Assembly (NCBI GenBank): GCA_903821875.1
Contig: CAIJMU010000024.1
Location: forward strand, 1-32,244
Direction of reading: 5' to 3'
Length of the DNA stretch: 32,244 bases
Source of the DNA: an uncultured Spirochaetota bacterium
GTDB lineage: Bacteria; Spirochaetota; Spirochaetia; Treponematales; Rectinemataceae
Shown: piece by piece, positions 6,122-21,609 of the stretch
How the letters are laid out: each line of letters starts with the position of its first letter
Position numbering within the stretch: the stretch's first letter is position 1
Translations under genes and position numbers: made by a program
Notes under the pieces: generated by a model
Databases searched by the model: none
Seen by the model: only the letters and a program-made list of their open reading frames with translations
Told to the model about the DNA's origin: nothing

Positions 6122-7986
6122 CAAGCGCGCAGCCTCGGCCTGTTGCTGTCGTCGCGGAAGCGGACTTCGCAGGCAAAGCCCCCAATTGTGGTAAACTCTA
6201 TTTCGCCGTGGAGCTGGTCGCGCGCGAGTCCGAGCACGGTCTGGAGGCCGAGGCCCCCCGTCTTTTCCGGGTCGAAGCCCTCGGCCACGCCGACGCCCCT
6301 GTCGGCCACCCGGAGGCTGATGAGCCCCTCCTCCGATTTCCGCAGCCTGACCTGGATCTCCCCCTCACGGCTTCCCGGAAAGGCGTGGGCGTAGGCGTTA
6401 GACATGAGTTCTGCCAGGATGAGGCCGCAGGGTATGGCCGAGTCGATGAGAACAGGCATGCGTTCCGAGTCCACAGTGACCGTCAAGGGGCAGTCTTCCC
6501 GCTTGTGGTTCCGGGCGACGATGCCGGCAACTGTGCCGACAAAATCGTCGAGATGTATCCGGCTGAGATCGCCCAGCTGGTAGAGCATGCGCTGCACGAC
6601 GGCCATCGAGCTGATCCTGTTCTGGATATCCTGCACCACCTTGGGAAAGCTGCTGCCTGCGACCTTCATCGCCCGGAAATCCATGAGGGCAGCGACCACC
6701 TGCATATTGTTGTTGCTGCGATGGTAGAGCTCCCTGAGCAGGCCCTGCTTTTCCGTGTTCATGCGCTCGAGCCTCACGGCATTGGCCTCCGAACTCGCCA
6801 GCGAGGCCGTAAAGCTCCGGATGAGCGACAGGGACTGGAAGAGGATGAAGCCGAGGAAACCGACGGACACGAGGTAGGGCGTAGGCAGGGAAAGGAGCGT
6901 CTTGACGCTGTCGTGTACCGAGGTTACCAGAAGGGCGAGGTAGCCGGAAAGGAAAAACTCTGCCCCCGAAATCCCTGCGGACAGGGAACGGAGGACGATC
7001 CAGAGCCCGATGAGGCCTGTTGCTGCAAAGTAGGCCAGCAAGATGAAAGAACCATGAACAAAGAGGCTGGCAGGAAGCAGGAGGGCAGAGAGGGTGTAAC
7101 CGCCCGCTCCGATGTAGAGCCAGGGCAGGAACCATCGGGGGACAGAGGGGCGCATGAGTCCTTCGAGGAAGAGCCCGACCAGGAGGATCCCCCCGGCGCG
7201 GCTGCCATAGGCTATCCTCATCTGGAGTTCCCAGTGGATCCACGGAAGGTTGTCGAGGAGGATATAGCCGCCATAGTCGAACTGCCTGAGCGCCAGGAGG
7301 AAACAGAGGAGGGAAAACCAGATCGAGCTGCGATCCTTGGTCCGGAAGAGGTAGAGCCCGAGGTGGTAGAGACCCATGATGAGGAGGCTGCCCGCCAGGA
7401 AGCCGTCCAGCATGCGGCTGCGCTCCCGCTCGCCCACGAGGGTCTGGAGGCTGCCGAGCCTCGGCGCGGCAAGTATGCCCGCAATCGGGTCGTGGAGGTT
7501 GGCTACGCGAAGGTCGAGGTGGTTGATCCCGGGGCGCGGTGGCAGCGACACAAGACCGGGGTGCACATCCTCGACAACCTGGGAGAGGTCGGCCGATACC
7601 CTCCCCGAACGCCACAGCAGCTCTCCGTTCCAAAGGAGTTCACAGGCCGAGTTCACCGGAGGCACTGCGATGGCCAAGCCTCCGGGCAGGGCCTCTGGGG
7701 AAAAATCCGGCAGGGCGATATCGAGGTGGTAGGTCCCCGAGCCGCGCGAGGAAGCGGTGGTTCCCGTCCAGTTCCCGGGCACATGGATGTCCCGGGGAAG
7801 GCCCGCGGCATCGGCATCCCACGACAATAGCCACATTCCCGAGAGATCGACTGCAGCTCCACCCTTCCACTGGGTCAGATCGACGACACCAGGACGAAGG
7901 TCGGGAAAGCCGGCCTGGGCAAGGAGACAGAGCAGGAGCACCGGGAGGGGCCTGGGGAGGGCGGGAAGGAAGGAATGTTTTCTCAT
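6121..7986 (-). CDS. 7TMR-DISM sensor histidine kinase (HisKA_2/HWE-like), first of a tandem pair
   Basis: 621 residues, colinear with the next kinase over its whole length. It has a signal peptide (1-28), an exported sensor domain (35-180, VNSACELLWNGELLW), seven membrane helices (about 195-390), HisKA_2 with His422 in ELYHRSNNNMQV, and an HATPase (LAELMSNAYAHAFPGS, ADRGVGV, GLGLQTV). HWE/HisKA_2 kinases normally phosphorylate stand-alone or output receivers; none lies beside this pair. The shared block structure (LHDPIAGIL / LHDPVAGIL, LLALRQ) shows descent from one duplicated gene. A promoter is proposed at 8066-8093. The start at 7986 has only a weak Shine-Dalgarno (GGGA). Confidence 0.88.
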   Translation of the reverse strand: MRKHSFLPALPRPLPVLLLCLLAQAGFPDLRPGVVDLTQWKGGAAVDLSGMWLLSWDADAAGLPRDIHVPGNWTGTTASSRGSGTYHLDIALPDFSPEALPGGLAIAVPPVNSACELLWNGELLWRSGRVSADLSQVVEDVHPGLVSLPPRPGINHLDLRVANLHDPIAGILAAPRLGSLQTLVGERERSRMLDGFLAGSLLIMGLYHLGLYLFRTKDRSSIWFSLLCFLLALRQFDYGGYILLDNLPWIHWELQMRIAYGSRAGGILLVGLFLEGLMRPSVPRWFLPWLYIGAGGYTLSALLLPASLFVHGSFILLAYFAATGLIGLWIVLRSLSAGISGAEFFLSGYLALLVTSVHDSVKTLLSLPTPYLVSVGFLGFILFQSLSLIRSFTASLASSEANAVRLERMNTEKQGLLRELYHRSNNNMQVVAALMDFRAMKVAGSSFPKVVQDIQNRISSMAVVQRMLYQLGDLSRIHLDDFVGTVAGIVARNHKREDCPLTVTVDSERMPVLIDSAIPCGLILAELMSNAYAHAFPGSREGEIQVRLRKSEEGLISLRVADRGVGVAEGFDPEKTGGLGLQTVLGLARDQLHGEIEFTTIGGFACEVRFRDDSNRPRLRA

Positions 7987-8065
7987 GCTTTCTGTCCCAT
8001 GCTATAAGGCGCCCACTGCGCCTTTCCCCCAATTGGCCATGCCCTGCGATATCTTTGACGAGGTG

Positions 8066-8093
8066 ATCCTACCCCACGCTGCCATCCCGTCAA
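8066..8093 (-). promoter_or_regulatory. Predicted promoter of the tandem sensor-kinase operon
   Basis: Minus-strand TTGACG (complement of 8088-8093), a 16-bp spacer, and TAGGAT (complement of 8066-8071), leaving a leader of about 75 nt. It lies in the 158-bp gap after the hybrid kinase gene, so the two kinases are probably transcribed independently of the chemosensory operon. Confidence 0.5.
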
Positions 8094-8144
8094 GGCGTAT
8101 AACTCAAAGATGCCAGGCCACTGCCTGTTTTCGGAGATTCCAGC

Positions 8145-10592
8145 TCAGAGCTGAAGGTAGCGGCCGATGGATGAGGTAGCGGTCGACAGGTGGCAGAAAA
8201 GCTCTGCTATGGCGGGATCATCGCAGCCGAGGGGCTCCCCCTCGGCAACGCGCTGCTCGAGGCGCTTCGAGGAAGCCTCGACGGCTGGTATGCCGAGGTT
8301 CGCGGAGGAGCCCTTGAGCCCGTGGAGGAGGCGCCGCGCCTCGGTAAAGTTGCCCTCCTCCAGGGCCGCGCGCAGGGCCGGGGGGAAGCCCACAAAGCTC
8401 GTCGCGAAGAGGCCCAGCATTTCGGCGAGGAGGGGCCGGTTGCCTCCCAACAGGAGGAGTCCGCCTTCCTCGTCGAGTCCCTCAAATTCCCCTATCCTGG
8501 ACGGCGCGACAGCTGCTGGTGGGGGGAGTCCGGGAGAAGGCCCTGTATCCCGCTCCGCCTCGTTTCTTCTGGCCATGCCACTGAGGTATTTGTCGAGCAC
8601 GAACAAGAGACGGACCATGTCGATCGGTTTGGTGATGACATCGTCCATGCCCTCGGCCAAGAAGCGCTCGATGTCGCTTTTCATGGCGTGGGCAGTCAGG
8701 GCGATGATCACTCCCTGGGACGACCGGGAACGGCGATCCGTGCCGGCGGCCTCGGCCCGCGCCTTCCTGATGCGCTTCATCGCTTCCACGCCGTCAATGC
8801 CAGGGAGGTTCACATCCATCAGTATCAGGTCAAAGTGCCGCGCCGAAGCGACAGATACGGCTTCCTCTCCGGTGACCGCAAAGCTCGCCTCGAAGCCATG
8901 GGATTCGAGCATGGCCTTGATGAGCTTGCGGTTGACCGGGTTGTCCTCGACGACCAGAATCCTGGCTTCGCAGCTGGCCGTGGGTTCTTCCCTCGTCGCC
9001 TTTTCCCCGACCGGGGTCTTGCTCCTCCGCTCGGGGCTCCTCCCGGGCAGGGCAATAAGGAAGCGACTGCCCTTGCCTTCCTCGCTCGAGACCTCGATGC
9101 GGCCACCATGGAGTTCGACGAGTTGCCTGGTTATAGGGAGCCCGAGTCCGGTCCCTTGAAGGCTCGCATCCGGCTGCCTGACCTGCTCGAAGAGCTCGAA
9201 GATCCGCCCGAGATTCCCTGCCGCAATTCCGATTCCCTGGTCCCAGACCTCAAGGAGGGCCATATCCCCCAGGCCCTGGGCCCGGAGGCCGACGGACCGG
9301 CCTTCTGGGGTAAACTTGATGGCGTTGGAAAGGAGGTTGTAGAGCATCTGGCGCACACGGATCTCGTCGGCATCGAGGATGCCGATGTCGGGAGCGACCT
9401 CGAGTTCGATCCTGACGCCCTTTTTTCTGGAAGCTGGCCTCATCGTCTCGACGAGCTTCTCGAGCAGGGGGAGGAGGTCGAAGGGCTTTCGGTGAAGGTC
9501 TATCTTGCCAGCCTCGATCTTGGAGAGGTCAAGGATGTCGCTGATCATGTCCATGAGGTGGTCGCCGCTCGTCTTGATATCCTGCACCCAGGTGCGCTGC
9601 TCCTCGCTCAGGGTCGAGGATCCAGTGGCCAGGAGCTGGCTGAAGCCTAAGATGGAGTTGAGCGGAGTGCGGAGCTCGTGGCTCATCGAGGCCAGGAAGT
9701 CACTCTTGGCCTGGTTCGCGGCCAGGGCGGCCTTCTCAGCCTTGATCATCGCCTCTTGTGAAGCCACACGCTCGTCCATATCGCTCAGGGTGACGAGGAA
9801 GAGCGGGGAGGCGCCATCGGTCTGGAGGGCCCCGATCTCGATGAAGACCCATTTCGGCCCGGCTTTTCCGGACGCGATGCGGGTGGCAAAGGAGGGGACC
9901 TCCCCCTCGGCCAGCAGGGTCTCGAGCTGCATCCGTACGCGGCTCCTGTCCTCTTCCACGACGAGGGAATCCAGGGGCTTCCCGACCAGGCTTGAGCGAT
10001 CGCTGGCCAGGTAGCCTCCCAGCGTCTCGTTGGCCTCGGAGATGATGCCTGAGCCATCGAGGGTCAGGTAGCCGACGGGTGCACGGTCGAAGAGCTCCCG
10101 GTAGCGCTTCTGCGAAGCGAAGAGCTTTGCCTCGCTGTCGAGGAGCTCCCGGTTCCTTGCGGCGAGCCTCTCCTTTTGCTCCTCCGACTCCTTGACCAGA
10201 CGTTTGTCTGTCCTCTCGAGTTCGAGGCGTTTTATCGCTGTCAGGATGGTGGCGCGGAGAAGGACGGGGCTGATGGGCTTCAGCAGGTAGCCGAAGGGAT
10301 CGGCAGACTGGGCCCGCCTCATGGTATCGTCGTCGGCGTGGACTGTCAGGAAAAGTACGGGCACTCCCTGCTCCCTTCGGAGCCGGATCGCCGTCTCGAT
10401 GCCATCCATCTCGCCCTTGAGTCCAATGTCCATGATCGCGAGGTCGGCAGTGCTGTGCGCCAGGGCCCTGAGAGCCACTTCGCCACGGGCTTCGCTGCCC
10501 AGCACCCTGCAGCCCATATCCTTGAGCATGTGCTCAAGGCGCTGCGCCGACAGGATGTCATCTTCTACGATAAAAACTTGCAACTGTTCCAT
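8145..10592 (-). CDS. Hybrid histidine kinase: REC-PAS-HisKA-HATPase-REC-HPt
   Basis: 815 residues with no membrane segment, so probably cytoplasmic. Domains in order: receiver (1-125, phosphoacceptor Asp55 in IMDIGLKG), PAS (155-275, FDRAPVGYLTLDGSG), HisKA (His305 in SMSHELRTPLNSILG), HATPase (NLLSNAIKFTPEG, DQGIGI, GTGLGL), receiver (543-670, Asp593 in LMDVNLPGIDG) and HPt (700-815, His757 in LHGLKGSSANLG). All phosphotransfer residues are present, so it can run a complete internal His-Asp-His relay and accept phosphate at its N-terminal receiver. It follows cheR by 31 bp and is the last gene of the chemosensory operon. CheA could be the donor to its first receiver; this is inference. Confidence 0.93.
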   Translation of the reverse strand: MEQLQVFIVEDDILSAQRLEHMLKDMGCRVLGSEARGEVALRALAHSTADLAIMDIGLKGEMDGIETAIRLRREQGVPVLFLTVHADDDTMRRAQSADPFGYLLKPISPVLLRATILTAIKRLELERTDKRLVKESEEQKERLAARNRELLDSEAKLFASQKRYRELFDRAPVGYLTLDGSGIISEANETLGGYLASDRSSLVGKPLDSLVVEEDRSRVRMQLETLLAEGEVPSFATRIASGKAGPKWVFIEIGALQTDGASPLFLVTLSDMDERVASQEAMIKAEKAALAANQAKSDFLASMSHELRTPLNSILGFSQLLATGSSTLSEEQRTWVQDIKTSGDHLMDMISDILDLSKIEAGKIDLHRKPFDLLPLLEKLVETMRPASRKKGVRIELEVAPDIGILDADEIRVRQMLYNLLSNAIKFTPEGRSVGLRAQGLGDMALLEVWDQGIGIAAGNLGRIFELFEQVRQPDASLQGTGLGLPITRQLVELHGGRIEVSSEEGKGSRFLIALPGRSPERRSKTPVGEKATREEPTASCEARILVVEDNPVNRKLIKAMLESHGFEASFAVTGEEAVSVASARHFDLILMDVNLPGIDGVEAMKRIRKARAEAAGTDRRSRSSQGVIIALTAHAMKSDIERFLAEGMDDVITKPIDMVRLLFVLDKYLSGMARRNEAERDTGPSPGLPPPAAVAPSRIGEFEGLDEEGGLLLLGGNRPLLAEMLGLFATSFVGFPPALRAALEEGNFTEARRLLHGLKGSSANLGIPAVEASSKRLEQRVAEGEPLGCDDPAIAELFCHLSTATSSIGRYLQL

Positions 10593-10623
10593 GCTGCGAT
10601 GTTCCCTCTAGCGGTAGCACCGC

Positions 10624-11469
10624 TCAGGCGGGCTTTTTCCTATAATACACTGCCCGAAGGTGGCGCATAGCTTCGAAACCCGTAGCCGTCCCAAGAAGCG
10701 ATTCGGTGGAGCCGATGATCAAGGCGCCATCCTTCTCGAGGACCCGTTCGAAGCGACCGAAAAGCTTCCGCTTGTCGTCCTCGGTGAAATATATTGCCAC
10801 GTTGCGGCAGAAGATCACGTCAAAATAGCCGAAGGATGCAAAATCCTCGAAGAGGTTCCAGCGCTTGAAGGTGGCAAAGGCACGGAGATCGTCGCGGATT
10901 CGATATCCTCCGTTCTCGACGATGAAGTGACGCTGGAGGAGCTCTGGAGGCATCCCCCGGACAATGTCGGCGGAGGCATAGAAACCCTTGCTCGCCTTGG
11001 CTATGGCGGAGTCAGAGATGTCTGTCGCAAGCAGCCGGATCGAATAGGCGGAGAGGTCGCCGAGAAGTTCCTTCAGCGCGATGAGGATCGAGTAGACCTC
11101 CTGCCCCGTGGAACATGCGGCGCTCCAGATGCGGAGCGCAACCTTGGCCTTCGGGCCGGCCAGCTTCCGCCTGGCGTCGATGAGCTCGGGCACGATCTTG
11201 AACTTGAGCATCTCGAAGGGCGAGGCATCGCGGAAAAAAGAGGTCTCCTGTGTCGTTATGCGGTCGATCACCCTGCGCGCGAGGGCCCCGGAGGCGTCGG
11301 ATTTGATGCGGTAGTAGAGTTCCGAATAACCCTTCAGCCCGAGTTCGCGCACGAGGGGCTCGAGGCGCGTCTCGATGAGGTAGCCCTTGGATGCGTCCAA
11401 CGCGATGCCGGTCAGGTCCCTGACCAGCTTCGCGTAGACAGTGAATTCCTCGGTGGAAAGTGCAGCCAT
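10624..11469 (-). CDS. cheR: Chemoreceptor methyltransferase CheR
   Basis: 281 residues, the usual CheR length. The N-terminal helical domain (1-85) contains RITTQETSFFRDASPFE. The SAM-binding domain carries WSAACSTGQEVYS, the LLATDIS strand, FCRNVAIYF and a GSTES segment near the C-terminus. CheR transfers methyl groups from S-adenosylmethionine to receptor glutamates. There is no TPR extension and no pentapeptide tether on the neighbouring MCP. It follows cheB after 2 nt and would oppose that esterase on the operon's MCP. Some normally strong positions differ (Ala for Gly in SAACSTG, Gln for Glu in TGQE), which does not by itself imply inactivity. Confidence 0.95.
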   Translation of the reverse strand: MAALSTEEFTVYAKLVRDLTGIALDASKGYLIETRLEPLVRELGLKGYSELYYRIKSDASGALARRVIDRITTQETSFFRDASPFEMLKFKIVPELIDARRKLAGPKAKVALRIWSAACSTGQEVYSILIALKELLGDLSAYSIRLLATDISDSAIAKASKGFYASADIVRGMPPELLQRHFIVENGGYRIRDDLRAFATFKRWNLFEDFASFGYFDVIFCRNVAIYFTEDDKRKLFGRFERVLEKDGALIIGSTESLLGTATGFEAMRHLRAVYYRKKPA

Positions 11470-11471
11470 GC

Positions 11472-12590
11472 CTAACGGATCCTTGCCATGATCTCGCCGG
11501 CGAGGCGGGACAGGGGCAGGACGTCATCTGCGAAACCCAGGGCAACTGTCGCCCCCGGCATGCCCCAGACGACCGAGCTCTCCTCGTCCTGCACGAGGAT
11601 CTCCCCCCCTGCCTTGCGGATGTCCCCCGCTCCCTTGGCTCCGTCGTTGCCCATGCCCGTCATGACGAGGGCGAGGGCACGGCCGTAGTACTGGCGCGCT
11701 ACCGAGCGGAAAAGGTAGTCCACGCTCGGCCTGCAGTTGTTCTCAGGGGGATCATCGGTGACACGGAGGACCTTGGTGATGGCGTCGGCGCCGAGATCCA
11801 CACGCATATGCCTGCCACCGGGGGCGAGGTATATACGGCCGGGCCTCAGCACTTCGCCGTTCTCGGCTTCCTTGACGGGGAGCTTGCCGCGATGGGTCAG
11901 GCTGTTGGCAAGGGAGGCAGTGAACAGGGCAGGCATGTGCTGGACTATGAGGATCGGCACGGGGATGTCGGCGGGGAGGGCGGGCACCAGTTCGAGGAGG
12001 GCGGCAGGCCCGCCGGTAGAAATACCAATTGCCACAATTTCGCAGGCTTGCCTGGCTGTCGGCCTTCGGGCCGGCGGCGCGCCTGCCGCCCCGCCCGGGG
12101 TGCCCGCGGCCATGCCCGCTGCAGGACGCGCGCCGAGGGGGAGGCTTGCCAGCTCCGGCCTTGCCTGTCCTCCCCCCAGTATTTTCCGTATCTCGCTGCG
12201 GCGGGCGAAGTTCTCGATCCTCGCACGAAGCTCGGCCTGGAAGTCTGCCCGCGAGATGGCTGCTCCGTCGGGCTTGGCGATGGCGTCCATGGCGCCGAGC
12301 TCGATGGCGCGCAGCGAGAGGTCGGCGCCCCGCGTCGTCAGCGCAGAGACCATGAGAAAGTTCCCCCCCAGCCCTGCCGCCTTCATGTGCTCGAGAACCT
12401 CTATCCCGTTCATCTCGGGCATTTCTACGTCGAGGGTCACCAGGTCGGGCTTGAGCATCGCGATGCGCGAAAGCGCTATCTTCCCGTTCGGCGCCGTGCC
12501 GACAACCCGCACGCCGGGAACCGATTCCGCGATGTCGGAAACGAGCTTCCGGTAGACGATCGTGTCATCGACGACAAGAATGGAAATCAT
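11472..12590 (-). CDS. cheB: Chemoreceptor methylesterase/deamidase CheB
   Basis: 372 residues. The receiver domain is at 1-125 with phosphoacceptor Asp54 (TLDVEMPEMNG). An Ala/Pro/Gly-rich linker follows at about 140-182, then the methylesterase domain with the catalytic triad Ser191 (GISTGGP), His218 (VQHMP) and Asp316 (TGMGNDGAKG). It removes methyl groups from receptor glutamates when phosphorylated by CheA, giving adaptation. The ATG at 12590 overlaps the stop of cheW in an ATGA junction and cheR starts 2 nt after its stop, so the pair is co-translated with the receptor and coupling protein. Confidence 0.96.
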   Translation of the reverse strand: MISILVVDDTIVYRKLVSDIAESVPGVRVVGTAPNGKIALSRIAMLKPDLVTLDVEMPEMNGIEVLEHMKAAGLGGNFLMVSALTTRGADLSLRAIELGAMDAIAKPDGAAISRADFQAELRARIENFARRSEIRKILGGGQARPELASLPLGARPAAGMAAGTPGGAAGAPPARRPTARQACEIVAIGISTGGPAALLELVPALPADIPVPILIVQHMPALFTASLANSLTHRGKLPVKEAENGEVLRPGRIYLAPGGRHMRVDLGADAITKVLRVTDDPPENNCRPSVDYLFRSVARQYYGRALALVMTGMGNDGAKGAGDIRKAGGEILVQDEESSVVWGMPGATVALGFADDVLPLSRLAGEIMARIR

Positions 12591-13084
12591 GCGATGGACA
12601 GGCTGCGCTTGGGATCGAGGATGGCGACGAGCATGTCGTCCCTCCGTAGCACGCCGACAAAGAGATCGGGGTCGGCGCCACGGAGATCGGCCCGCATCGG
12701 CTGGATCTCGGAGGCATCGGCTTCGATCACGTCCCGCAGCGCGGGCACCTGCACGCCGATCGCCTCGCCCCCGGCCTCCTCGATGACCAGGAGACGGGGG
12801 TCATGGGGCTCTGTCCGTGGCAGGCCGAGCTTTACCTCGAGGTCGATGACAGTGATGATGCGGCCGCGCAGGTTGACGACACCCATCACGTAGGGCGCCG
12901 CTCCGTAGGAACGAGTGATGCGGGGCAGCCTGATGACTTCCCCGACCGAGCGCGCGTCGTAGGCCATGAAGGAGTTGCCCGCAGCGAAGACGACGAGCAT
13001 GACGCTCCCCGATCCGGACGCCCCGGAACTATCCACCCCCACCTTTCCGTTGGCAGGCCTCCCGCCCGCATTCTCCGCGCTCAT
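12587..13084 (-). CDS. cheW: Chemosensory coupling protein CheW
   Basis: 165 residues. A Gly/Ser-rich N-terminal extension of about 26 residues precedes a single CheW domain (about 28-160) with the typical segments [28 protein letters not shown] and [15 protein letters not shown]. CheW links the MCP tip to CheA. The start ATG overlaps the MCP stop (ATGA) and its stop overlaps the cheB start, placing it in the translationally coupled core of the operon. It is one of three CheW-type domains encoded here, the other two being inside CheA. Confidence 0.95.
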
Positions 13085-14769
13085 ATCTTGAAGCGCTCAA
13101 CGAGACGCCTGAGCCCTTCGGAGAGCCTCGAAAGCTCTTCGGAGGACATCAGGACCTGCGCGCTCGAGGTGGAGATCTCTCCGGCGGCCTGGTTTACCTC
13201 GGTGATGTCCTGGGTCATGTTGTTGACAGCCTTCGAGGCCTCGGCCACGTTGCGGTTGGCGTCCTCGACACCGCGGGAAGCCTGGGCCACATTGGTCGCG
13301 ATGTCCCGGGTCACGGAGGACTGTTCCTCGATGGCAGCCGCAATTCCCGCGACGATCTCGTTCACCTGGCGGATGACCTCGGCCACCGAGCCGATGTCCT
13401 GCACGGCTGTGCTGGAAGAAGACTGGATGCCCTCGATGCGGGCCTTGATGTCCTCGGTGGCGGCGGCGGTCTGCCGGGCGAGTTCCTTGATCTCGTTGGC
13501 GACAACGGCGAAACCCTTGCCGGCCGCCCCCGCGCGTGCAGCCTCGATGGTCGCGTTGAGGGCCAGGAGGTTGGTCTGCGAGGAGATGGCGCTGATGGTT
13601 TCGGTCACCTTGCCGATCTCGCGTGCAGCCGTACCAAGTGTGTCCATCGTTCCCGAAACGCGCTTGGCGGAGTCGACAGCCTCGGCGGTGACCTTGCGCG
13701 CCCGCTCCGCGTTCATGGCTATCTCGCCGATCGTCGAGGTCATCTCCTCCGAGGCTGTGGCGACGGTGGAGAGGTTGACGGTCGTCTCTTCCATGGCTGC
13801 GGAAACGCCACTCATGTTGGTGCTCGTCTGCTCCGAGGCTGCGGCGACGCCGTTCGCCCTCGCGCTCGTGGATTCCGCGCCCATCGTCATCTGCTTGGAG
13901 ATGGAGGAGAGTTCGGTAGCCGCCGACGAGAGCGTCTGCACTCCCTCGTGTATCTTGCCGAACATGTCGCGGAGATTGGAAGAGGCTCCGTTCAAGGCCT
14001 CCGCCAGGAGGCCGACATCGTCTTTCTGGCTCACATCGATCTGCTTGGTCAGGTCACCGTCGGCCACCGCCTTCGCAAAGTCGACGCCCTTCCCCAGGGG
14101 CTTGACGATCATATTCGTCACAACCAGGCCGAGCACGATGGAGATGATTACGCCCAGGAGGATGATCACGATTATGATGACCAGGCTCGAGTTGGCGAGT
14201 TTCAGGTTGTCGGCTGCCGAGCTGGCCCCGAAGGCGAGATTGAAGTCGATGATGGCATTGATCTGACTGATGACGGGGGTGGCTACCTTGGCGACCACAT
14301 CGAGGAAGAAAAGCCTTGCGGCAAGCTGCCTGGCGGAAAAGGCGTCCTTCCCATTGCCGACGTAGATCGACTGGTACTCGGTCACCTTCTCGAGCCAGAG
14401 CTTGTAGGAGTCCTGGAAGGTGGCGAAGTTCTTCCTGTCCTCATCGTTCAGGAAGGACTTCTGGTAGGTTTCGCTGGCCTTCGCGACGAGCTGGAGGCTC
14501 GGATCTATCCTGGCCTTCGCGGCAAGCATGTCCTTGTCGTTCTCCGATATAAGCATGTCGCGTGTGGCCACTCGGATGTTCCCGTATTCCCGGAGGACGT
14601 CCACCATGATATCTATAGGCACTGTGCTGTTGTTGTAGGCGTAGCGATAGTTCGCGTCGATGGTCTTTATGTAGTAGATGCCGAAGCCGCCTATGACGCT
14701 GGCTATCAACGCCACGGCGATGAAGCTGCCCAGAAGCTTGGTCCGTATGCGCATGTCCGCGAATCTCAT
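13081..14769 (-). CDS. Methyl-accepting chemotaxis protein, transmembrane, 4-helix-bundle sensor
   Basis: 562 residues. Membrane segment 1 is at about 12-34, followed by a mostly helical periplasmic domain of the 4HB_MCP kind (35-195), membrane segment 2 (about 196-218), HAMP (about 218-272), and a long cytoplasmic coiled-coil signalling domain with the conserved tip [20 protein letters not shown] and a nearby [14 protein letters not shown]. It ends in RRLVERFKI without a CheR/CheB-binding pentapeptide. The ligand is unknown. It overlaps cheA and cheW by ATGA junctions, so it is the dedicated receptor of this system, although other MCPs could also join the array. Confidence 0.95.
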
Positions 14770-17700
14770 GAGATGCTCCTTGTATCGTCCGTTCCGTCCC
14801 TGCCGGCCAATATAGCCGCCACGCTCGCAAGGAGGGCGTCCTTGTCCAGTTTAACGAGGTATTCGCGGGCGCCGGCCGCGCGCAGGACCTTCTCGTCATC
14901 ATCGGAGGCCAGGGATGTGAGGGCTATGACGGGAAGCCCCGGAAATTCCTCGGCCAGCTTCTCGGTAAGCCCGCGGCCGTCGAGCCTCGGCATCTCGACG
15001 TCGGTCACCACGAGGGCGACTTCCTGTCCGAGCTCACGCACGAGGGCGAGGGCCTCGAGGCCATCCCTGCCTGCCCTGGCGCGGTAGCCGCCCTCGGTGA
15101 GGATCTCCAGTACCATGTTCCTGAAAAAATCGGAATCCTCGGCGAGCACCAGAAGGGGCGCGGTCGGGTCCTCGGTGGGAGGTTCCGATGCGGGCGCAGC
15201 ATCCCGAGCCTCCGCCTGGGACCCTGTCGTGCCAGGCCTGGCCCCCGTGACAGCGAACCACTCAGGCTTGAGCACGGAGAGGGCTCCCACCGGATCGATG
15301 ACCACCGTGGTCTGTCCCTGGATGACCGCCGTTCCAGAAACCCCGGCCTTGCGCATCGAACGTTCGTCGAGCACTGCCTCCGCCGAAACGGAGTCCACCG
15401 GCGGCGAGGCCAGGAAGCCGAAGTGGAAGCCCGCCGTGTGGCAGAGCACGCAGGCCTGGGCGCTATCGGCGTCCAGGGGCGAAAGCCCCGTGAAGGAACC
15501 CACGGAAAACACCGGCAGGGACAGGCCACCCACCCTGAGGAACAAATCCTTGCCAATTGGGTCTATATCGCCCTTTGTCACGCGGACAACGCGCTCGACC
15601 GCCTCGAGGGGCATCGCGCACTGCTCCGTGCTGCCGTTCCTGAACAATAGCCAGCCCTGGGCTGCGTCGGGGATTTCCTCGGGCTCTTCCTCGGCAGCGT
15701 GCTCGTCACCCACGCCGGTCAGGCCCGCCTTCAGGGCGAGACCGACCGGGTCGATGATGAGGGCGACCGCCCCGTCGCCGAGGATGGTGGCACCCGAATA
15801 CTCCTTGAGCGACTGGAGGTGACGGCCGAGGGGCTTCACCACGATTTCGGTGGTGTCGAAGAGCGCGTCGACGATGACGCCGTAGCGGAAGCCCGAGGAA
15901 CGCACCACGATGATGCGGTAGTCGCTCTCCACGCGGAAGCGGCGCTCTTCCTGGCTCCGGTCCGCGGCATGGCTTGTTTTTCCAAGCACGGCCGCCATCG
16001 CCTCGGAGGAGGGCGAGCGCCTGTCCTCGACACGATCGCGGCGGTCGGGAAGGTTTTCACCCGTAGCGGGGTCCTCGAAACTCCGTTCCATTCCGATCGC
16101 ATCGGCAAGGCGCACGAGGGGCAGGACCTCGCCCCGGAGCACCAGGACAGCGCGGTCGCCAACCCGCTCGATACGACGCTGCACATCGCCGGCGCGCACG
16201 TGGAGGAGCTCCGCGGCTGCTGCCTGGGGCAGGGCGAAACGCTCCTCGCCCACACCAGCCAGGAGGGCGGGGATAACCGACAGCGTGAGCGGCAATGTGA
16301 TGCGGACCTTCGTTCCCGAGCCGGGCGCCGAGTCGATCTCGATGCGGCCGCCGAGGCGGTCCACATTGGCCTTGACCACGTCCATGCCCACGCCGCGCCC
16401 CGAGAGGTCGGAGACCTTTGTCGCCGTCGACAGGCCTGGCAGTGTTATGAGGTAGAGCTTTTCCTTCGCCGACATCAGCGACACGCGGTCCTTGGCTACC
16501 AGGCCCATGGTCACGGCCTTCGCGGCGATGGCTTCCGCGTTGATACCCTTGCCGTCATCCTCCACGAGGACGAGGATCTGGCCCGCGACATGGGCTGCAG
16601 ACAGGGAGATCGTACCCCGCCTCGACTTGCCCGCCGCCACGCGAACCGCGGGATCCTCGATGCCGTGGTCACAGGCATTCCGCACGAGGTGGGTCAGGGG
16701 ATCGGAGAGGGTCTCGAGAAGGCTCCTGTCCAGTTCGGTGTCCTTGCCGGTGATACGGAGATCGATGTCCTTGCCCAGGTCGCGGGCGAGGTCGCGCACC
16801 GTTCGCTGGAAACGCGCGAAGAGGTTGGAGGCAGGCTGCATCCGCGAGCGCATTACAGCGGCCTGGATATTTGCCGTCACCGTGTTGAGGCGCTGGGCAG
16901 CTGCCAGGGTCGCGGCCGGGTTGGCCCTCCTCATGACATCCGACAATTCGTTCCTGACCAGCACGAGTTCGCCGGAGAGGTTCATCAGGTCGTCGAGCAC
17001 GTTGACGGAGACGCGGACGGTCTCGGTTTCGCTTCCCGTGGGAGCACCGGCACCTGCCTTGGCTGGGGCCAAGGAGGCCTCGGCCGCAGGAGCCGGCGCC
17101 GGGGCTGCCTCGGCCGTCCCGCTCCGCCCCGCCTGGACAGGGGCCGCCACCGGGGCGGCGCCCGCGTTTGAAGCCGCCACAAGGGGCGAAACCGGGGCGG
17201 CGCTCACCACGACGGGTGCCGCCGCAGGGCGGACTTCCGGAATCCTGAGCATCGTGATGCCGATCAGGGGAAGTTCGAAGCGGAGCGACACTTCGTGGAG
17301 GCTCAGGCCTGCGGCATAGAGAACGAAATACGGCACATCGTCGCCGAAGGTCTCGCTATCGAGGGTACCGACCGACAGGTAGTCCAGGGCGCTGTCCAGG
17401 ATTTCGCCAGAGTCGAGGAGGGCATGAATGACTGCCAACGGCGATTTCCCGAGGCGGTGCACGTCATGCACGAGGTCAAAGCGGAGAAGAAACAGCGACT
17501 TGTCCTGCTCCATCAAGCGTTCGACCTCGGCTTCCTCGGCTTCGAGTTCGCGGCTCGAACCGGGGGCGGCGAACTTCAGGATCTTCGGACGCTCGCTGGG
17601 CCCCTGGGCATAGGCGGCTGCAAGGCCGATCAGGCCGACCAGTTCGTCGGCGATATCAGCCTGCTCCGATTCCTCGGGCACATCGATGAGAGCCGACAGC

Positions 17701-18002
17701 CGGTCGAAGCCGCGGAGAAGTATGGTCACCACCTCGGGGTTCGGCGTCATCTTCCCGGTCCTGACATGCTCAAGGACATTCTCAAGCTTGTGGGCGAGTT
17801 CCTTGATCACCTTGAAATCGAAGAAGCCTGCTCCGCCCTTGATGGAATGCGCCGCGCGGAAAATCTTGTTGATGAGGGCATCGTCGCGTGAGACTCCCTG
17901 ACGCTCCAGTTCGACAAGGTCCTCTTCGATCGAGGCCAGATGCTCCCTGGACTCCTGGATGTACGATTGTACCAGTTCCTGGTCGTATTCCACCTTCGCC
18001 AC
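14766..18002 (-). CDS. cheA: CheA histidine kinase with two CheW-like domains and a C-terminal receiver
   Basis: 1078 residues, well above the usual 650-750. Domains: HPt/P1 (1-105, His52 in [11 protein letters not shown]), a P2-like region (about 165-255), an Ala/Pro-rich linker (256-325), P3 dimerisation (about 328-395), P4 kinase ([31 protein letters not shown]; about 400-570), P5 CheW-like (575-760, with an acidic/basic insertion at about 640-695), a second CheW-like domain (about 782-925), and a receiver (949-1065, Asp about 1001 in [12 protein letters not shown], Lys in YLVKLDKD). All catalytic elements are present. The start is a GTG three nt after the upstream stop. With no cheY in the operon, the fused receiver may serve as output or phosphate sink. 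Confidence 0.95.
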
Positions 18003-18005
18003 CGC

Positions 18006-18713
18006 CTAGCCGAGCTTCAGATGGCGGTCGAGGCGCATCATCTTGAAAAGGCCCACCAGGTCCTCGTTGGCGCCGGTCACCCGGAGTGAGCGCCCCTGGG
18101 CGACAAGGCTGTTGGCAGCCGCAATGAGGAGTCCCAGTCCCTTCGAGTCGATCATCCTCACCGCCGACAGGTCGATGGTGAACTCTCCCTGGCTGGCCGC
18201 CACGAGACTGCGGAGTTCCTCCTTCACGGCGGGAACGCTGGTCGCCACGATGTCAGCCCTCGGGTTCCAGCTCCCGGGGCCTGTGTTGTCCTGCATTGCC
18301 TGGTCCTCCCCGATGACGAATTCTGCGATGAATTTCCGTCCGCCATCCTCATAGTGATAGGTATCCGAATATTCCGAGATGAGGTGGATGCCGTTCCCGG
18401 AAGTTCCCGCCTCGCGGGAGAGTTCCCGAGAAAGCTCGACCTCTGGATCGAATCCGCAGCCAGCATCCTCCACCGAGAGCAAGAGCCTTCCCCCAGCCAG
18501 GGACAGCGTCACGTGCACGATCCTGGAGGGATCGAGGCCACAGCCGTGCTCGATCGAGTTCTGGATCGCTTCGCGCGCTACGAGCTCGATGGCAAAGCGC
18601 CGCTCCGTAACCCCGATCGCTGTGAGTCGCTGGTGGAGAAGCGCAATGAACTGCTTGACCGAGGCGTCCTCTGCGGAGAGCCCCAGATCAAGGAGGCTCA
18701 GGTCGGCCATCAT
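18006..18713 (-). CDS. RsbW-like serine kinase fused to RsbV-like STAS domain
   Basis: 235 residues. Residues 15-137 form a GHKL ATPase of the anti-sigma/RsbW type (N box EAIQNSIEHG, G1 VEDAGCGFDP, G2 SGNGIHLI). Residues about 150-235 form a STAS domain of the anti-anti-sigma type with the phosphorylatable serine at Ser190 (MIDSKGLGLL). Kinase and its usual substrate are therefore on one polypeptide. The ATGATG start (18713 or 18710) overlaps the stop of the PP2C gene, and cheA begins 3 nt downstream. The natural eraser of Ser190 phosphate is the REC-PP2C protein encoded just upstream. No sigma factor is adjacent, so the final target is unknown. Confidence 0.9.
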   Translation of the reverse strand: MMADLSLLDLGLSAEDASVKQFIALLHQRLTAIGVTERRFAIELVAREAIQNSIEHGCGLDPSRIVHVTLSLAGGRLLLSVEDAGCGFDPEVELSRELSREAGTSGNGIHLISEYSDTYHYEDGGRKFIAEFVIGEDQAMQDNTGPGSWNPRADIVATSVPAVKEELRSLVAASQGEFTIDLSAVRMIDSKGLGLLIAAANSLVAQGRSLRVTGANEDLVGLFKMMRLDRHLKLG

Positions 18714-19846
18714 GAGTCTATAGCCATCAGGAGGCGGTCATCGCCGACCGGCCCTGCCGGAAGTATGGAGCTGCGCACCGCGGCGAGGGCCTCATCCCGG
18801 GCCGTGGCGGAGGAAGCCGATACCGCGCGCTCGAGGCGCCCGAGCCCTGCGCTCCAGGATTGCCCGCTGTGGAAGTCCTCGAGCACCCCGTCTGTGTAGA
18901 GCCAGTAGCGGTCCCCTTCCTCGAGATGGAAGCTGCCCATCTGGAAGTGCGGTGCCTCGAAGGCTCCCAGGATGTCCCCCTCGGCCCTGAGGCTCCGGCT
19001 CTCGCCGCCCTTTGACACGGCCAAGGCCGGGAAATGCCCGGCACAGGCAAAGGAACCAGTGTCAGAAAGCCGGTTCAGGATGAGATAGAAAGCCGTGACG
19101 TGCTGCCCGTCATTGAGATTTCGCCTGAGCGCACGGTTCATGCTGTACATCGTCTCGCCTGCGGTGTTGAGCACCGAGGCGTTTTCCCGGAACAGGGCCT
19201 TGAGTACTGAGGCCTGGAAGGCCGACTCGATGCCATGGCCAGAAATGTCCGCCACAAGGTAGCCGTGGATGCCAGGGCTCAGCTCCACGATGTCGTACTG
19301 GTCCCCCCCAGCCTCCTCTGCGGCTTCGAAGAAGACCGAGCACTTTGCTGCCGGAAGGGCCTCGGCGTTGGTCAGGAAGGACTTGTGGGCGTCGCTCAGG
19401 GATCGCAGGCGCTCGGATTGCAAAGCTGCCAACTGGAGGGCCTGACGCGCCAGCTTGAGGTGGATCTTTACCCGGGCGACCAGTTCCTCGGCACTGAAGG
19501 GCTTCTGGACAAAATCGACGGCCCCGATCGATAGCCCCCGGATCCGGCTCTTCACGTCCTCGAGGCTCGTCACGAAGATGATCGGGCGCTCGGACAGGGT
19601 GGTAGTGGCGATGATGCGCTCGCAGAGCGAGAATCCGTCTCCGTCAGGGAGGATCACGTCGAGGAGGAGGAGGTCAGGCAGCAGTTCCACCGCCATGGTA
19701 TACCCCTCCGCGACGGTGCCCGCAATCCGCGAGATAAAGCCGTTGACCGACAGGATATGGGCCATTGTACTCGCCACCACCGGGGAATCGTCGACTATGA
19801 GGATAAGTGGCTGTTCTCTCGGGACGGCAAGGTTGCCAAATTCCAC
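18710..19846 (-). CDS. Receiver-PP2C (RsbU/SpoIIE-type) phosphatase, first gene of the chemosensory operon
   Basis: About 378 residues: a receiver near the N-terminus (VDDSPVV; phosphoacceptor Asp in LLLLDVILPDGDG; Lys in VQKPFSAEE), a short coiled coil, then a PP2C-type phosphatase with metal-binding acidic residues (EEAGGDQYD, ADISGHG, YTDGVLED, VGDDRL). It should dephosphorylate a STAS-domain serine when its receiver is phosphorylated. I place the start at the GTG at 19846, which has AAGGGGG just upstream. The ATG at 19876 and TTG at 19903 are in frame but lie inside the proposed promoter -10 and -35 boxes. Its stop overlaps the kinase-STAS gene start. Confidence 0.88.
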   Translation of the reverse strand: MEFGNLAVPREQPLILIVDDSPVVASTMAHILSVNGFISRIAGTVAEGYTMAVELLPDLLLLDVILPDGDGFSLCERIIATTTLSERPIIFVTSLEDVKSRIRGLSIGAVDFVQKPFSAEELVARVKIHLKLARQALQLAALQSERLRSLSDAHKSFLTNAEALPAAKCSVFFEAAEEAGGDQYDIVELSPGIHGYLVADISGHGIESAFQASVLKALFRENASVLNTAGETMYSMNRALRRNLNDGQHVTAFYLILNRLSDTGSFACAGHFPALAVSKGGESRSLRAEGDILGAFEAPHFQMGSFHLEEGDRYWLYTDGVLEDFHSGQSWSAGLGRLERAVSASSATARDEALAAVRSSILPAGPVGDDRLLMAIDS

Positions 19847-19874
19847 AAGGCCCCCTTGTTGCTGTGAGTAATCC

Positions 19875-19903
19875 ATTCTCGCAAATAAGCGGCATTCTGT
19901 CAA
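19875..19903 (-). promoter_or_regulatory. Predicted promoter of the eight-gene chemosensory/partner-switch operon
   Basis: Minus-strand TTGACA (complement of 19898-19903), a 17-bp spacer, and GAGAAT (complement of 19875-19880). Transcription would start near 19868, upstream of the GTG at 19846 and its Shine-Dalgarno AAGGGGG (complement of 19851-19857). Confidence 0.55.
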
Positions 19904-19928
19904 ATTTGCTTCGCATCACAGGTTCCCG

Positions 19929-20141
19929 ATGTGCATTGACGGCGACTGGCCGACTTCTTTCGCGCTCCGCATCCTGGCGGGCATCTGCCTCGGCGCCTGC
20001 TCGGCGATGTGGGTCCTCTGTGCTGTCTTGCTGGCCATTGCCTCGACCGTCTTCGTGGGTGACATCGCCGCCCTGCGCGCCCGGATGAAGTCCGTAGCCC
20101 AAGAGCTGCGCTTGGCCACGGCGGCTAGTCCAGGATCGTGA
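19929..20141 (+). CDS. Possible small membrane protein (70 residues)
   Basis: This lone plus-strand frame lies between the OmpA-family gene and the chemosensory operon, where neither strand holds another credible gene. It encodes about 35 strongly hydrophobic residues (about 11-45, rich in Ala, Leu, Cys and Ile) followed by a charged helix (ALRARMKSVAQELRLA). Third codon positions are mostly G or C, as in the neighbouring genes. An AGG lies 6 nt before the ATG. It would end 17 bp inside the 3' end of the converging ompA-like gene. No family is recognised; it could be a chance frame. Confidence 0.35.
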   Translation: MCIDGDWPTSFALRILAGICLGACSAMWVLCAVLLAIASTVFVGDIAALRARMKSVAQELRLATAASPGS

Positions 20142-21609
20142 TCTCCACCCGCCGGTTCCTCGCCCTGCCCTGATCGTCTGTATTAGGAGCGATTGGCCTC
20201 GTTGAACCGAGGCCCCTCCAGATGAAGCGCGAGGCGGGGATGCCCCGCTTCGAAAGGGCGTCGACTATGGTTTTAGCCCGCTGCTTCGACAGATCGAGCT
20301 CGCCCTGGGGCTTTCCCGCGCTCGCAGCGTGGCCCTCGACGAGGAAGCTGCGTCCGCCCGGGGCGGCGAGCAGGGCCTTCGCAATTGTGTCGAGCCTGCC
20401 GGACTCGCCGGGAAGGAGCTCCGCGGAGTCGGCCCTGAAGCGCAGGTCCAGGATGCGGAGGACCACTCCGCCCTCCCCCTCGGCGACCTCGAGGTCGGGA
20501 CCCGCGAGGGCGATGACCTCCAGCGGCGGCGCCGACAAGGGCGGCGGTGAAAGGCTCGCATCTGACGCAGCCGGGGGCGATGCGGAGGGCGGCTGAGCCG
20601 GGGCAGGCCTTGTCGGAAGGGCAGGATTTCCGGCGTCGGGTGGGATCCCGGGGGCGCCAGCCCTGGGGTCGATGCTTTTGGGCACGGGCAGGGCGCCGAG
20701 CTTGTCCTTGAGGATGGCCACAAGGCTCCCCCGGTCGCCCCCATCACCGCCCTTCCAGAACACGAGGTTCGAGCCCGACCTCCTCTCGCTGCCCCCCTGG
20801 GCAAAGCCGAAGGTCTCGTCGAAGCTGTCCCGGAGGAAGATCGGAGCGCCTGTGTGGGCATCGAGCCTGATGTCGAGGTCATGGCTCCCCTTCGCCGCCG
20901 CGAGTCCGGCAACCGGGCCCTGGAGGCGTGTGGCGAACTTTGCCCGTACCTCGATGGAGTCGCGGCCGAGGTAGGGGGACCTACCCGTGACGCGATACTC
21001 CGCAAGGAAGGGCAGGCGCAGGGCCTGGCCACGGAGGTTGACGAGCCGGGTGCCCGGAGCGACGAAAGAAGCTCCAATTATGAGGTTATCGGAGGCTGGT
21101 ACCCCTTCCTTCCAGCCTCCGGCGGGGAAGCCCCTGGGGTAGCTTGCCCCTGCGATGTCGAGGAGCCCCTGGAGGGAGGGTGCCCGTGCGCCGCCTCCGC
21201 TGCCTTCCGCGTAGTCGTCGCGGAGGCAGCCCAGTGCTCCGCTTGAGTAGCGCCCGCGCCCTGAGAGGTCGAGGCCCCGGGCCTCGGCTCTCAGGTCGCG
21301 GAGGGTCTCCTCGAGGAGGTACCAGGTGCCCGTCCGCGTGCCTCCGGGCTGTCCGGGGCCTGCTGCCTCGAGGGTAGTCCGTGTCTCCCCCCAGGCGTGG
21401 CCGACATAGGCACCGTCCACCCAGCGCGAGAAATCGCTCCGCTCCACGATATGGTCAGGCTCCGCGCTGACATGATCGGGTTCCTGTGCCTGCGCGGCGG
21501 CGGGTTGTGCCTGCGCGGCAGCGGGTTGTGCCTGCGCGGCGGCGGGTTGTGCCACCACCGCGGCCATTGCGGCAATGATACCAAGTATCAATTTATTAGT
21601 TAGACACAT
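20125..21609 (-). CDS. OmpA-family outer-membrane/peptidoglycan-binding protein
   Basis: 494 residues. A signal peptide (MCLTNKLILGIIAAMAAVVA) runs into three copies of a 7-residue Gln/Pro/Ala repeat. A large beta-rich body (about 50-300) is followed by a Pro/Ala/Ser-rich linker (about 305-355) and an OmpA-like domain (about 385-494; LRFRADSAELLPGESGRL, LDLSKQRAKTIVDAL, RARNRRVEITI) expected to bind peptidoglycan in the periplasm. The body resembles no family I can name. It overlaps the end of pgeF by 10 bp and is the last gene of the rluA-like/DUF5312/pgeF operon. Anchoring the envelope to the cell wall is the likely role. Confidence 0.85.
   Translation of the reverse strand: MCLTNKLILGIIAAMAAVVAQPAAAQAQPAAAQAQPAAAQAQEPDHVSAEPDHIVERSDFSRWVDGAYVGHAWGETRTTLEAAGPGQPGGTRTGTWYLLEETLRDLRAEARGLDLSGRGRYSSGALGCLRDDYAEGSGGGARAPSLQGLLDIAGASYPRGFPAGGWKEGVPASDNLIIGASFVAPGTRLVNLRGQALRLPFLAEYRVTGRSPYLGRDSIEVRAKFATRLQGPVAGLAAAKGSHDLDIRLDAHTGAPIFLRDSFDETFGFAQGGSERRSGSNLVFWKGGDGGDRGSLVAILKDKLGALPVPKSIDPRAGAPGIPPDAGNPALPTRPAPAQPPSASPPAASDASLSPPPLSAPPLEVIALAGPDLEVAEGEGGVVLRILDLRFRADSAELLPGESGRLDTIAKALLAAPGGRSFLVEGHAASAGKPQGELDLSKQRAKTIVDALSKRGIPASRFIWRGLGSTRPIAPNTDDQGRARNRRVEITILD
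21488..21550. repeat. Three tandem 21-bp units in the ompA-like gene
   Basis: Three consecutive 21-bp units (21488-21508, 21509-21529, 21530-21550) differ at one base (the middle copy has A for G). They encode repeated AQPAAAQ-type heptapeptides just after the signal peptide core. Because 21 is a multiple of three, gain or loss of units keeps the frame. Confidence 0.9.

What the first reader, a model, noticed from the sequence alone, without database searches (positions are those of the whole stretch)
8145..19903. Chemosensory array operon fused genetically to a partner-switching module and a phosphorelay
Eight genes on one strand, joined by ATGA overlaps or gaps of 1-31 bp, encode REC-PP2C, RsbW-STAS, CheA, MCP, CheW, CheB, CheR and a REC-PAS-HK-REC-HPt hybrid. 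The operon has adaptation enzymes and a receptor but no cheY, cheX, cheC or cheD. A simple reading is that CheA phosphorylates the receiver of the PP2C, which dephosphorylates the STAS serine, so receptor signals are turned into a partner switch; CheA or its receiver may also feed the hybrid kinase. That would be a chemotaxis-type array controlling gene expression or another cell function rather than the flagellar motor. Each domain is seen directly; the wiring is inference.
Basis: partly seen in the sequence, partly recalled or inferred. Interest (0 to 1): 0.85.

Follow-up and report, generated by a model that had tools for sequence, protein, structure and literature searches.

The report
Chemoreceptor array wired to partner switch
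In a spirochaete, one operon encodes a chemotaxis-type sensing array together with a phosphatase, kinase and antagonist of the kind that often switch sigma factors, so it probably controls gene expression or another function rather than swimming; the arrangement is conserved in relatives, and a similar link is already known in Shewanella.

Summary
Observation confirmed: eight co-directional genes encode REC-PP2C, RsbW-STAS, CheA, MCP, CheW, CheB, CheR and a REC-PAS-HK-REC-HPt kinase. Correction: the first gene probably starts at GTG 19846; TTG 19903 lies in a promoter-like site. Gene order is conserved: a CheA segment that Pfam does not name, used as tracer, found 13 genomes; in 11 of the 12 whose upstream side is on the contig, REC-PP2C, RsbW and STAS directly precede cheA. 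The exception is the weakest match. A separate flagellar-type cheA lies elsewhere in the genome. Best reading: a non-flagellar array whose CheA phosphorylates the PP2C receiver and so sets the RsbW/STAS switch; the target is unknown. The hybrid kinase follows CheR in 2 of 5 readable genomes, and in one its first receiver has lost the phosphoacceptor, so feeding it is not a conserved step. RsbW and STAS are fused in 6 genomes and split in 5; all 6 fusions keep the old STAS start codon with a Shine-Dalgarno-like motif, so free STAS may also be made (unproven; one control does not support it). Shewanella Che1-CrsR/CrsA is the known precedent: a new variant of a known kind.

The parts
19875..19903 (-). 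sigma-70-type promoter-like site TTGACA-17-GAGAAT, overlapping the TTG that the mechanical ORF uses as start
   Evidence: 10 of 12 matches; shuffle mean 0.1 in 501 bp; a consensus match, not proof
18710..19846 (-). REC-PP2C (SpoIIE-type) phosphatase, probable start GTG 19846; receiver acceptor residues and PP2C acidic residues intact
   Evidence: Pfam PF00072 E 6.7e-22, PF07228 E 4.2e-30; start; residues:
18006..18713 (-). RsbW-type kinase/anti-sigma domain fused in frame to a STAS antagonist domain with DSKGLG serine
   Evidence: Pfam PF13581 E 1.1e-16, PF13466 E 4.4e-13; closest solved chains SpoIIAB and TM1442
18006..18296 (-). possible second product: free STAS (96 aa) from internal ATG 18296-18294
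   Evidence: ATG at the start-codon position of split STAS genes; retained in 6 of 6 fused genes; not shown to be used
18304..18311 (-). Shine-Dalgarno-like GGGGAGGA before the internal ATG
   Evidence: dG -11.0, the best of 148 ATGs scored in the operon and better than the gene starts scored; not unusual against synonymous recoding (P 0.17)
14766..18002 (-). CheA: Hpt - unnamed segment - short P3 - P4 - CheW-like domains (read as two) - REC
   Evidence: Pfam; Hpt His, ATP boxes and REC residues intact
17217..17585 (-). CheA segment P2x, ferredoxin-like in the model, perhaps a divergent P2 docking domain; used as tracer
   Evidence: no Pfam hit; AF2 pLDDT 78, pTM 0.68; Foldseek 1u0s CheA P2 E 0.12, prob 0.95; VIA Z 5.9, tied with unrelated folds
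13081..14769 (-). chemoreceptor (4HB_MCP_1 - HAMP - MCPsignal)
   Evidence: Pfam
12587..13084 (-). CheW
   Evidence: Pfam PF01584 E 1.3e-26
11472..12590 (-). CheB (REC - methylesterase)
   Evidence: Pfam PF01339 E 3.1e-65
10624..11469 (-). CheR
   Evidence: Pfam PF01739 E 2.6e-52
8145..10592 (-). REC-PAS-HisKA-HATPase-REC-Hpt hybrid kinase; not part of the conserved core
   Evidence: Pfam; follows CheR in 2 of 5 readable genomes

Best explanation
A chemosensory array of the 'alternative cellular function' sort, not the motor system. The 4-helix-bundle receptor, CheW and CheA form the array; CheB and CheR adapt it (inferred from family knowledge). CheA-P1 phosphorylates the receiver of the PP2C phosphatase (inferred; the main claim), with the receiver on CheA's own C-terminus acting as a sink or brake (inferred). 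The phosphatase removes the phosphate that the RsbW domain puts on the STAS serine (inferred from SpoIIE/RsbU-RsbV-RsbW biochemistry, recalled). Unphosphorylated STAS then occupies RsbW and frees whatever RsbW holds, most likely a sigma factor; no target gene is in the operon. RsbW-STAS is made as a fusion, possibly with free STAS from an internal start. Whether phosphorylation turns the phosphatase up or down is unknown. The hybrid kinase is a lineage-specific extra input.
For: Operon anatomy with ATGA overlaps. P2x-type CheA in 13 genomes (7 of 390 order, 3 of 392 phylum, 7 of 394 class genomes, overlapping draws); REC-PP2C, RsbW and STAS directly upstream in 11 of the 12 whose upstream side is on the contig. 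Acidic pair, acceptor Asp, T/S and K kept in 10 of 10 visible PP2C receivers; STAS Ser and RsbW N-box E and N in 11 of 11. CheA is the one kinase present in all 13; the hybrid kinase is not found after CheR in 3 of 5 readable genomes. The genome's other two cheA clusters show no PP2C, RsbW or STAS in the stretches taken; the C108 CheA has Pfam P2, H-kinase_dim over 125 aa against 59 aa here, and beside it a CheW-CheR fusion and CheX; an extended P3 marks chemotaxis CheAs in spirochaetes (PMC10703414, passages). Precedent: Shewanella che1 holds CrsR/CrsA, a partner switch on RpoS (PMC9855816, passages; PMC6482189, passages).
Against: No phosphotransfer data. The docking segment is not shown to be a P2. 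In Pseudomonas the homologous REC-PP2C protein HsbR is phosphorylated by an HPt protein (PMC6482189), and this operon ends with an HPt. Histidine-kinase genes also lie upstream of the PP2C within the fetched stretch in G474 and G717 (same strand) and in G001 and G702 (opposite strand), so other donors are near in some relatives. One weak match, G784, has the CheA type with only a STAS-like gene that lacks the serine. G736, G702 and G717 have a CheY-like receiver by the PP2C that may be CheA's main target there. REC-PP2C alone is no marker: 8 of 10 close REC-PP2C matches had no cheA in the fetched stretch. G702's PP2C is shortened and lacks the TDG motif; G716 reads TDC and G428 SDG. The sigma factor is not identified: 7 Sigma70_r2 matches in the genome, none in the window.
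Confidence: 0.6

Rival explanations
1. The HPt of the hybrid kinase, not CheA, is the donor to the PP2C receiver (as HptB is to HsbR in Pseudomonas), or both donors converge on it; CheA would then serve mainly CheB and its own receiver.
For: The operon ends with REC-PAS-HK-REC-HPt; HptB phosphorylates HsbR in P. aeruginosa (PMC6482189, passages); histidine-kinase genes lie near the PP2C in G474, G717, G001 and G702 too.
Against: The hybrid kinase follows CheR in 2 of 5 readable genomes; the other 3 (one genus) have a receptor gene there, while PP2C-RsbW-STAS-cheA stays together in 11 of 12.
Confidence: 0.22
2. CheA passes phosphate to the first receiver of the hybrid kinase, as CheA3 does to CheS3 in Rhodospirillum centenum, and the output leaves by the HPt; the partner switch is a side branch.
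For: The window's first receiver has the acceptor residues (read by eye); precedent PMC3868531 (abstract and section 12 read).
Against: In G463, the only other genome in which I found this gene after CheR, the same receiver has Ser for the acceptor Asp and Arg for Lys (read by eye); the gene is not there in 3 of 5.
Confidence: 0.08
3. The array acts on motility through a distant CheY and the partner-switch genes are merely neighbours or set the expression level of flagellar genes.
For: Motility-type cheA and cheX exist in the genome; G736, G702 and G717 keep a CheY-like gene by the PP2C.
Against: Adjacency conserved in 11 of 12; CheA here has a short P3, unlike the spirochaete chemotaxis type (PMC10703414); no cheY in the window operon.
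Confidence: 0.07
4. Compatible with the best reading up to the last step: the switch controls a protein other than a sigma factor, such as a diguanylate cyclase (as SiaC-SiaD or HsbA-HsbD) or the receptors themselves.
For: Such targets are described or proposed (PMC9239204, passages; PMC6482189, passages); no sigma gene is in the window.
Against: The RsbW domain is closest in sequence to SpoIIAB among solved chains, though that does not fix the target.
Confidence: 0.25

Closest known systems
Shewanella oneidensis Che1 with CrsR-CrsA (PMC9855816, PMC6482189; passages read)
   Same: One locus holds a chemosensory system and a REC-PP2C-kinase/STAS partner switch; proposed output is release of a sigma factor.
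   Different: There CrsR joins REC, PP2C and kinase in one protein with a separate antagonist (CrsA), and the locus has cheY and cheD. Here REC-PP2C is separate, the kinase is fused to STAS, CheA has two CheW-like domains and its own receiver, and there is no cheY or cheD. I did not compare the two by sequence.
Pseudomonas aeruginosa HptB-HsbR-HsbA (PMC6482189; passages read)
   Same: A receiver controls a PP2C that sets the phosphorylation state of an antagonist.
   Different: The donor is an HPt protein fed by hybrid kinases; the paper's text has no 'CheA' or 'chemosensory'.
Rhodospirillum centenum CheA3-CheS3 (PMC3868531; abstract and section 12 read)
   Same: CheA with C-terminal receiver and a receiver-bearing hybrid kinase in one che cluster of alternative function.
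   Different: There the output is CheY3; no partner switch in what I read. Here the hybrid kinase is not conserved.
Borrelia burgdorferi CheA1 (PMC10703414; passages read)
   Same: A spirochaete CheA that is dispensable for chemotaxis in vitro and affects gene expression through RpoS.
   Different: There the effect is on RpoS stability; the authors write that no anti-sigma factor had been found in that organism.
Leptospira LvrB-LvrC (PMC13269768; passages read)
   Same: A spirochaete phosphorelay feeding an RsbW-like domain; LvrC (9qih) is among the best fold matches of the RsbW-STAS model.
   Different: REC is fused directly to the RsbW-like domain; no PP2C, STAS or chemosensory array in what I read.

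Membership tests
PP2C/RsbW/STAS partner-switching module | RsbW-type kinase with N-box E and N | tested here: met
   REAIQN in the window; E and N kept in 11 of 11 genomes; Pfam PF13581. That these residues define the box is recalled
PP2C/RsbW/STAS partner-switching module | STAS with phosphorylatable serine (DSxGLG type) | tested here: met
   MIDSKGLG; DS kept in 11 of the 12 STAS rows, all but G784, which has no PP2C or RsbW beside it
PP2C/RsbW/STAS partner-switching module | PP2C (SpoIIE-type) with metal-binding acidic residues | tested here: met
   PF07228 E 4.2e-30; motifs intact in the window; in relatives the TDG motif is missing in G702, TDC in G716, SDG in G428
PP2C/RsbW/STAS partner-switching module | phosphorylation of STAS by RsbW and a bound target such as a sigma factor | not testable with these tools
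   no target gene in the window; 7 Sigma70_r2 matches elsewhere
Chemosensory system (MCP-CheW-CheA core) | MCP, CheW and CheA together, here with CheB and CheR | tested here: met
   Pfam, all over cut-off
Flagellar (F2-type) spirochaete chemotaxis operon | CheW-CheR fusion, CheX, Pfam P2 and extended P3 in CheA | tested here: not met
   absent in the window; present on contig C108 of the same genome. That the fusion, CheX and P2 define F2 is recalled; the extended P3 is from PMC10703414
Shewanella Che1/CrsR-CrsA type | REC-PP2C-kinase in one protein, cheY and cheD in the locus | tested here: not met
   kinase is separate from REC-PP2C and fused to STAS; no cheY or cheD
CheA P2 (CheY-binding) domain for the unnamed CheA segment | match to Pfam P2 or a clear fold match | tested here: inconclusive
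   no Pfam hit; 1u0s at Z 5.9, tied with unrelated folds

The most novel reading that the evidence does not exclude
A rare but phylogenetically spread spirochaete signalling device in which a chemoreceptor array sets a partner switch whose kinase and antagonist are one gene that yields two proteins: a tethered RsbW-STAS kinase-substrate and, from an internal start with the strongest ribosome-binding site of the operon, free STAS. Frame changes at the same junction have repeatedly turned split pair and fusion into one another without loss of the STAS start, so the fusion would tune the RsbW:STAS ratio rather than abolish free STAS.
Probability: 0.35. Interest if true: 0.65.

Novelty: new variant of a known kind. 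Interest (0 to 1): 0.52.

Why it matters
Many chemosensory clusters have no known output. A conserved operon that places the presumed output (PP2C, RsbW, STAS) directly beside its CheA gives a concrete, testable wiring for a non-motility array in spirochaetes, where Borrelia CheA1, dispensable for chemotaxis in vitro, also acts on gene expression. The fused and split forms of RsbW-STAS are a natural experiment on whether kinase and antagonist must be separate proteins.

Tried and rejected
REC-PP2C as tracer: too common. Of 10 close matches in 9 of 392 genomes, only the window and G333 had cheA beside it in the fetched stretch.

A cis-docked RsbW-STAS model: AF2 gave good domains (pLDDT 83) but pTM 0.56, so I draw nothing about domain orientation. 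The unnamed CheA segment as a P2 domain: fold look-alike only. Absence of other families from that list says nothing.

Synonymous-recoding control for the internal Shine-Dalgarno: P 0.17, 0.21, 0.43, 0.03, 0.46, 0.45 for G000, G001, G474, G428, G736, G702. So the codons are mostly not chosen beyond what the residues give, which weakens the internal-start reading. What remains is the retained ATG in 6 of 6 and the rank of the site among ATGs (fraction at least as good 0.007, 0.013, 0.074, 0.019, 0.058, 0.074; n = 148, 75, 27, 159, 276, 258). G736 and G702 are close relatives and not independent.

More relatives in the family of G736: 3 of 8 genomes match, none new; G694, 97% complete and of the same genus, has no match, so the system looks accessory. 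The P2x searches scored at most 10 or 11 first-look candidates per genome, so some members may have been missed.

Literature searches listed nothing that, by title and start of abstract, describes this operon or an internal STAS start; some listings were capped (82: 15 of 191; 86: 10 of 19; 44: 17 of 19). Subscription papers are mostly missing, among them the 2018 review on partner switches with divergent inputs, which I know only from reference lists.

Changed on re-checking: neighbouring kinase genes in four relatives and the G073/G784 downstream order were added; for the former I moved the best reading from 0.62 to 0.60 and the HPt rival from 0.20 to 0.22.
Full report
What is there. The window is contig C24 of a 4.68 Mb, 193-contig genome, taken as a spirochaete from its relatives: the two near records with this operon that bear a genus name are MAGs deposited as Treponema sp.. 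Eight minus-strand genes run from about 19.87 kb to 8.145 kb: REC-PP2C, RsbW-STAS, CheA, MCP, CheW, CheB, CheR, hybrid kinase. Four junctions overlap by 4 bases, the others are 2, 3 and 31 bp. The mechanical start of the first gene, TTG 19903, is the TTG of a promoter-like TTGACA-17-GAGAAT; GTG 19846 has the better ribosome-binding site. The catalytic residues that I looked at are intact in the window.

Is the link real? CheA carries, between Hpt and P3, a segment of about 120 aa that Pfam does not name (here P2x). Searching with it gave 7 of 390 genomes of the order, 3 of 392 of the phylum and 7 of 394 of the class; the draws overlap and the union is 13 genomes (G000, G001, G008, G073, G333, G428, G463, G474, G702, G716, G717, G736, G784). 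Reading the neighbourhoods, the contig shows the upstream side of cheA in 12; in 11 the order REC-PP2C, RsbW, STAS, cheA holds (in G716 the contig ends within the PP2C). The twelfth, G784, is the weakest match (E 2e-12) and has only a STAS-like gene without the serine. G073's contig ends in cheA. Downstream, MCP, CheW, CheB and CheR follow in G463, G428, G736, G702 and G716, with extra receptors in each; G073 has CheW, CheB and CheR without a receptor between; G784 has CheW, then its contig ends; the contigs of G001, G008, G474, G333 and G717 end in or just after cheA or the MCP. Residues: receiver acceptor set kept in 10 of 10 visible PP2C receivers, RsbW E/N in 11 of 11, STAS serine in these same 11 (not in G784), CheA Hpt His in 12 of 12 visible. 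In the PP2C, G702 is shortened and lacks the TDG motif, G716 reads TDC and G428 SDG.

What it is not. The genome has two more CheAs. On C108 lies cheA with Pfam P2 and a long P3, a CheW-CheR fusion and CheX, the motility type; the window's CheA has a short P3, and an extended P3 is reported as the mark of chemotaxis CheAs in spirochaetes (PMC10703414, passages). On C26 lies a third cluster with a REC-REC-nucleotide cyclase after CheA. So the window array is likely one of several with non-motor outputs.

How it likely works. The kinase found in all these operons is CheA, and, apart from CheA's own and CheB's, the receiver they share is that of the PP2C. I therefore infer CheA to PP2C-REC transfer, then dephosphorylation of STAS and release of RsbW's partner. 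The hybrid kinase follows CheR in the window and G463 but not in G736, G702 and G716 (one genus), and in G463 its first receiver has lost the acceptor Asp. Against a CheA-only view, histidine-kinase genes lie on the upstream side in G474 and G717 (same strand) and G001 and G702 (opposite strand). In G736, G702 and G717 a CheY-like receiver precedes the PP2C, so there CheA has a further possible target. The target of RsbW is open: seven Sigma70_r2 matches exist in the genome, none here. The genome has 12 SpoIIE and 10 STAS matches in all, so cross-talk with other switches cannot be excluded.

The fused gene. RsbW and STAS are fused in G000, G001, G474, G428, G736, G702 and split in G008, G463, G333, G717, G716. 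On a tree of PP2C, RsbW and CheA (12 genomes; columns with 40% gaps or more dropped) the state changes at least four times; two inner nodes are weakly supported (46 and 44), so the number is approximate. In all six fusions an ATG stands where split STAS genes start, with a Shine-Dalgarno-like motif 5' of it; in the window it is the best of 148 ATGs scored in the operon and better than the gene starts. Against this, synonymous recoding shows the motif is largely given by the residues. I regard free STAS from the internal start as plausible, about one in three, and unproven.

Known or new. A chemosensory locus with a partner switch is known in Shewanella (che1 with CrsR/CrsA; PMC9855816 and PMC6482189, passages); phosphate flow from CheA to a hybrid kinase is known in R. 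centenum (PMC3868531, abstract and one section); [quoted passage not shown] The different protein layout, a different phylum, no cheY in the operon, the RsbW-STAS fusion and its conservation make this a new variant of a known kind. The literature searches listed under Tried and rejected did not bring up this operon.

Noticed in passing
L005 (G000:C26) 6727-16066: A third chemosensory cluster of the same genome: dCache MCP, double-CheW protein, CheA-REC and a REC-REC-adenylate/guanylate cyclase, then a WG-repeat protein; suggests an array with a cyclic-nucleotide output.
   Followed up: partly
window 4235-7986: Two tandem 7TMR-DISM HisKA_2 kinases downstream of the operon on the same strand, 158 bp after it; alike by eye.
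   Followed up: no
L127 12055-12420, L128 11634-11999, L126 2327-2713: CheY-like single receivers directly upstream of REC-PP2C in relatives; L127 also has a CheX-like gene nearby.
   Followed up: partly
L128 10746-11633 (G702): REC-PP2C shortened, TDG motif missing; may be inactive or an assembly fault.
   Followed up: no
L069/L070 (G463:C74) 19748-23134: Hybrid kinase after CheR whose first receiver has lost the acceptor Asp (pseudo-receiver), with a longer middle part than in the window.
   Followed up: partly
L010 8757-13619 (G001); L023 5102-9974 (G474): Large histidine-kinase genes near the PP2C: a 1620-aa open frame with HK, REC and Hpt on the opposite strand in G001; an HK-REC gene and a REC gene just upstream on the same strand in G474.
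   Followed up: no
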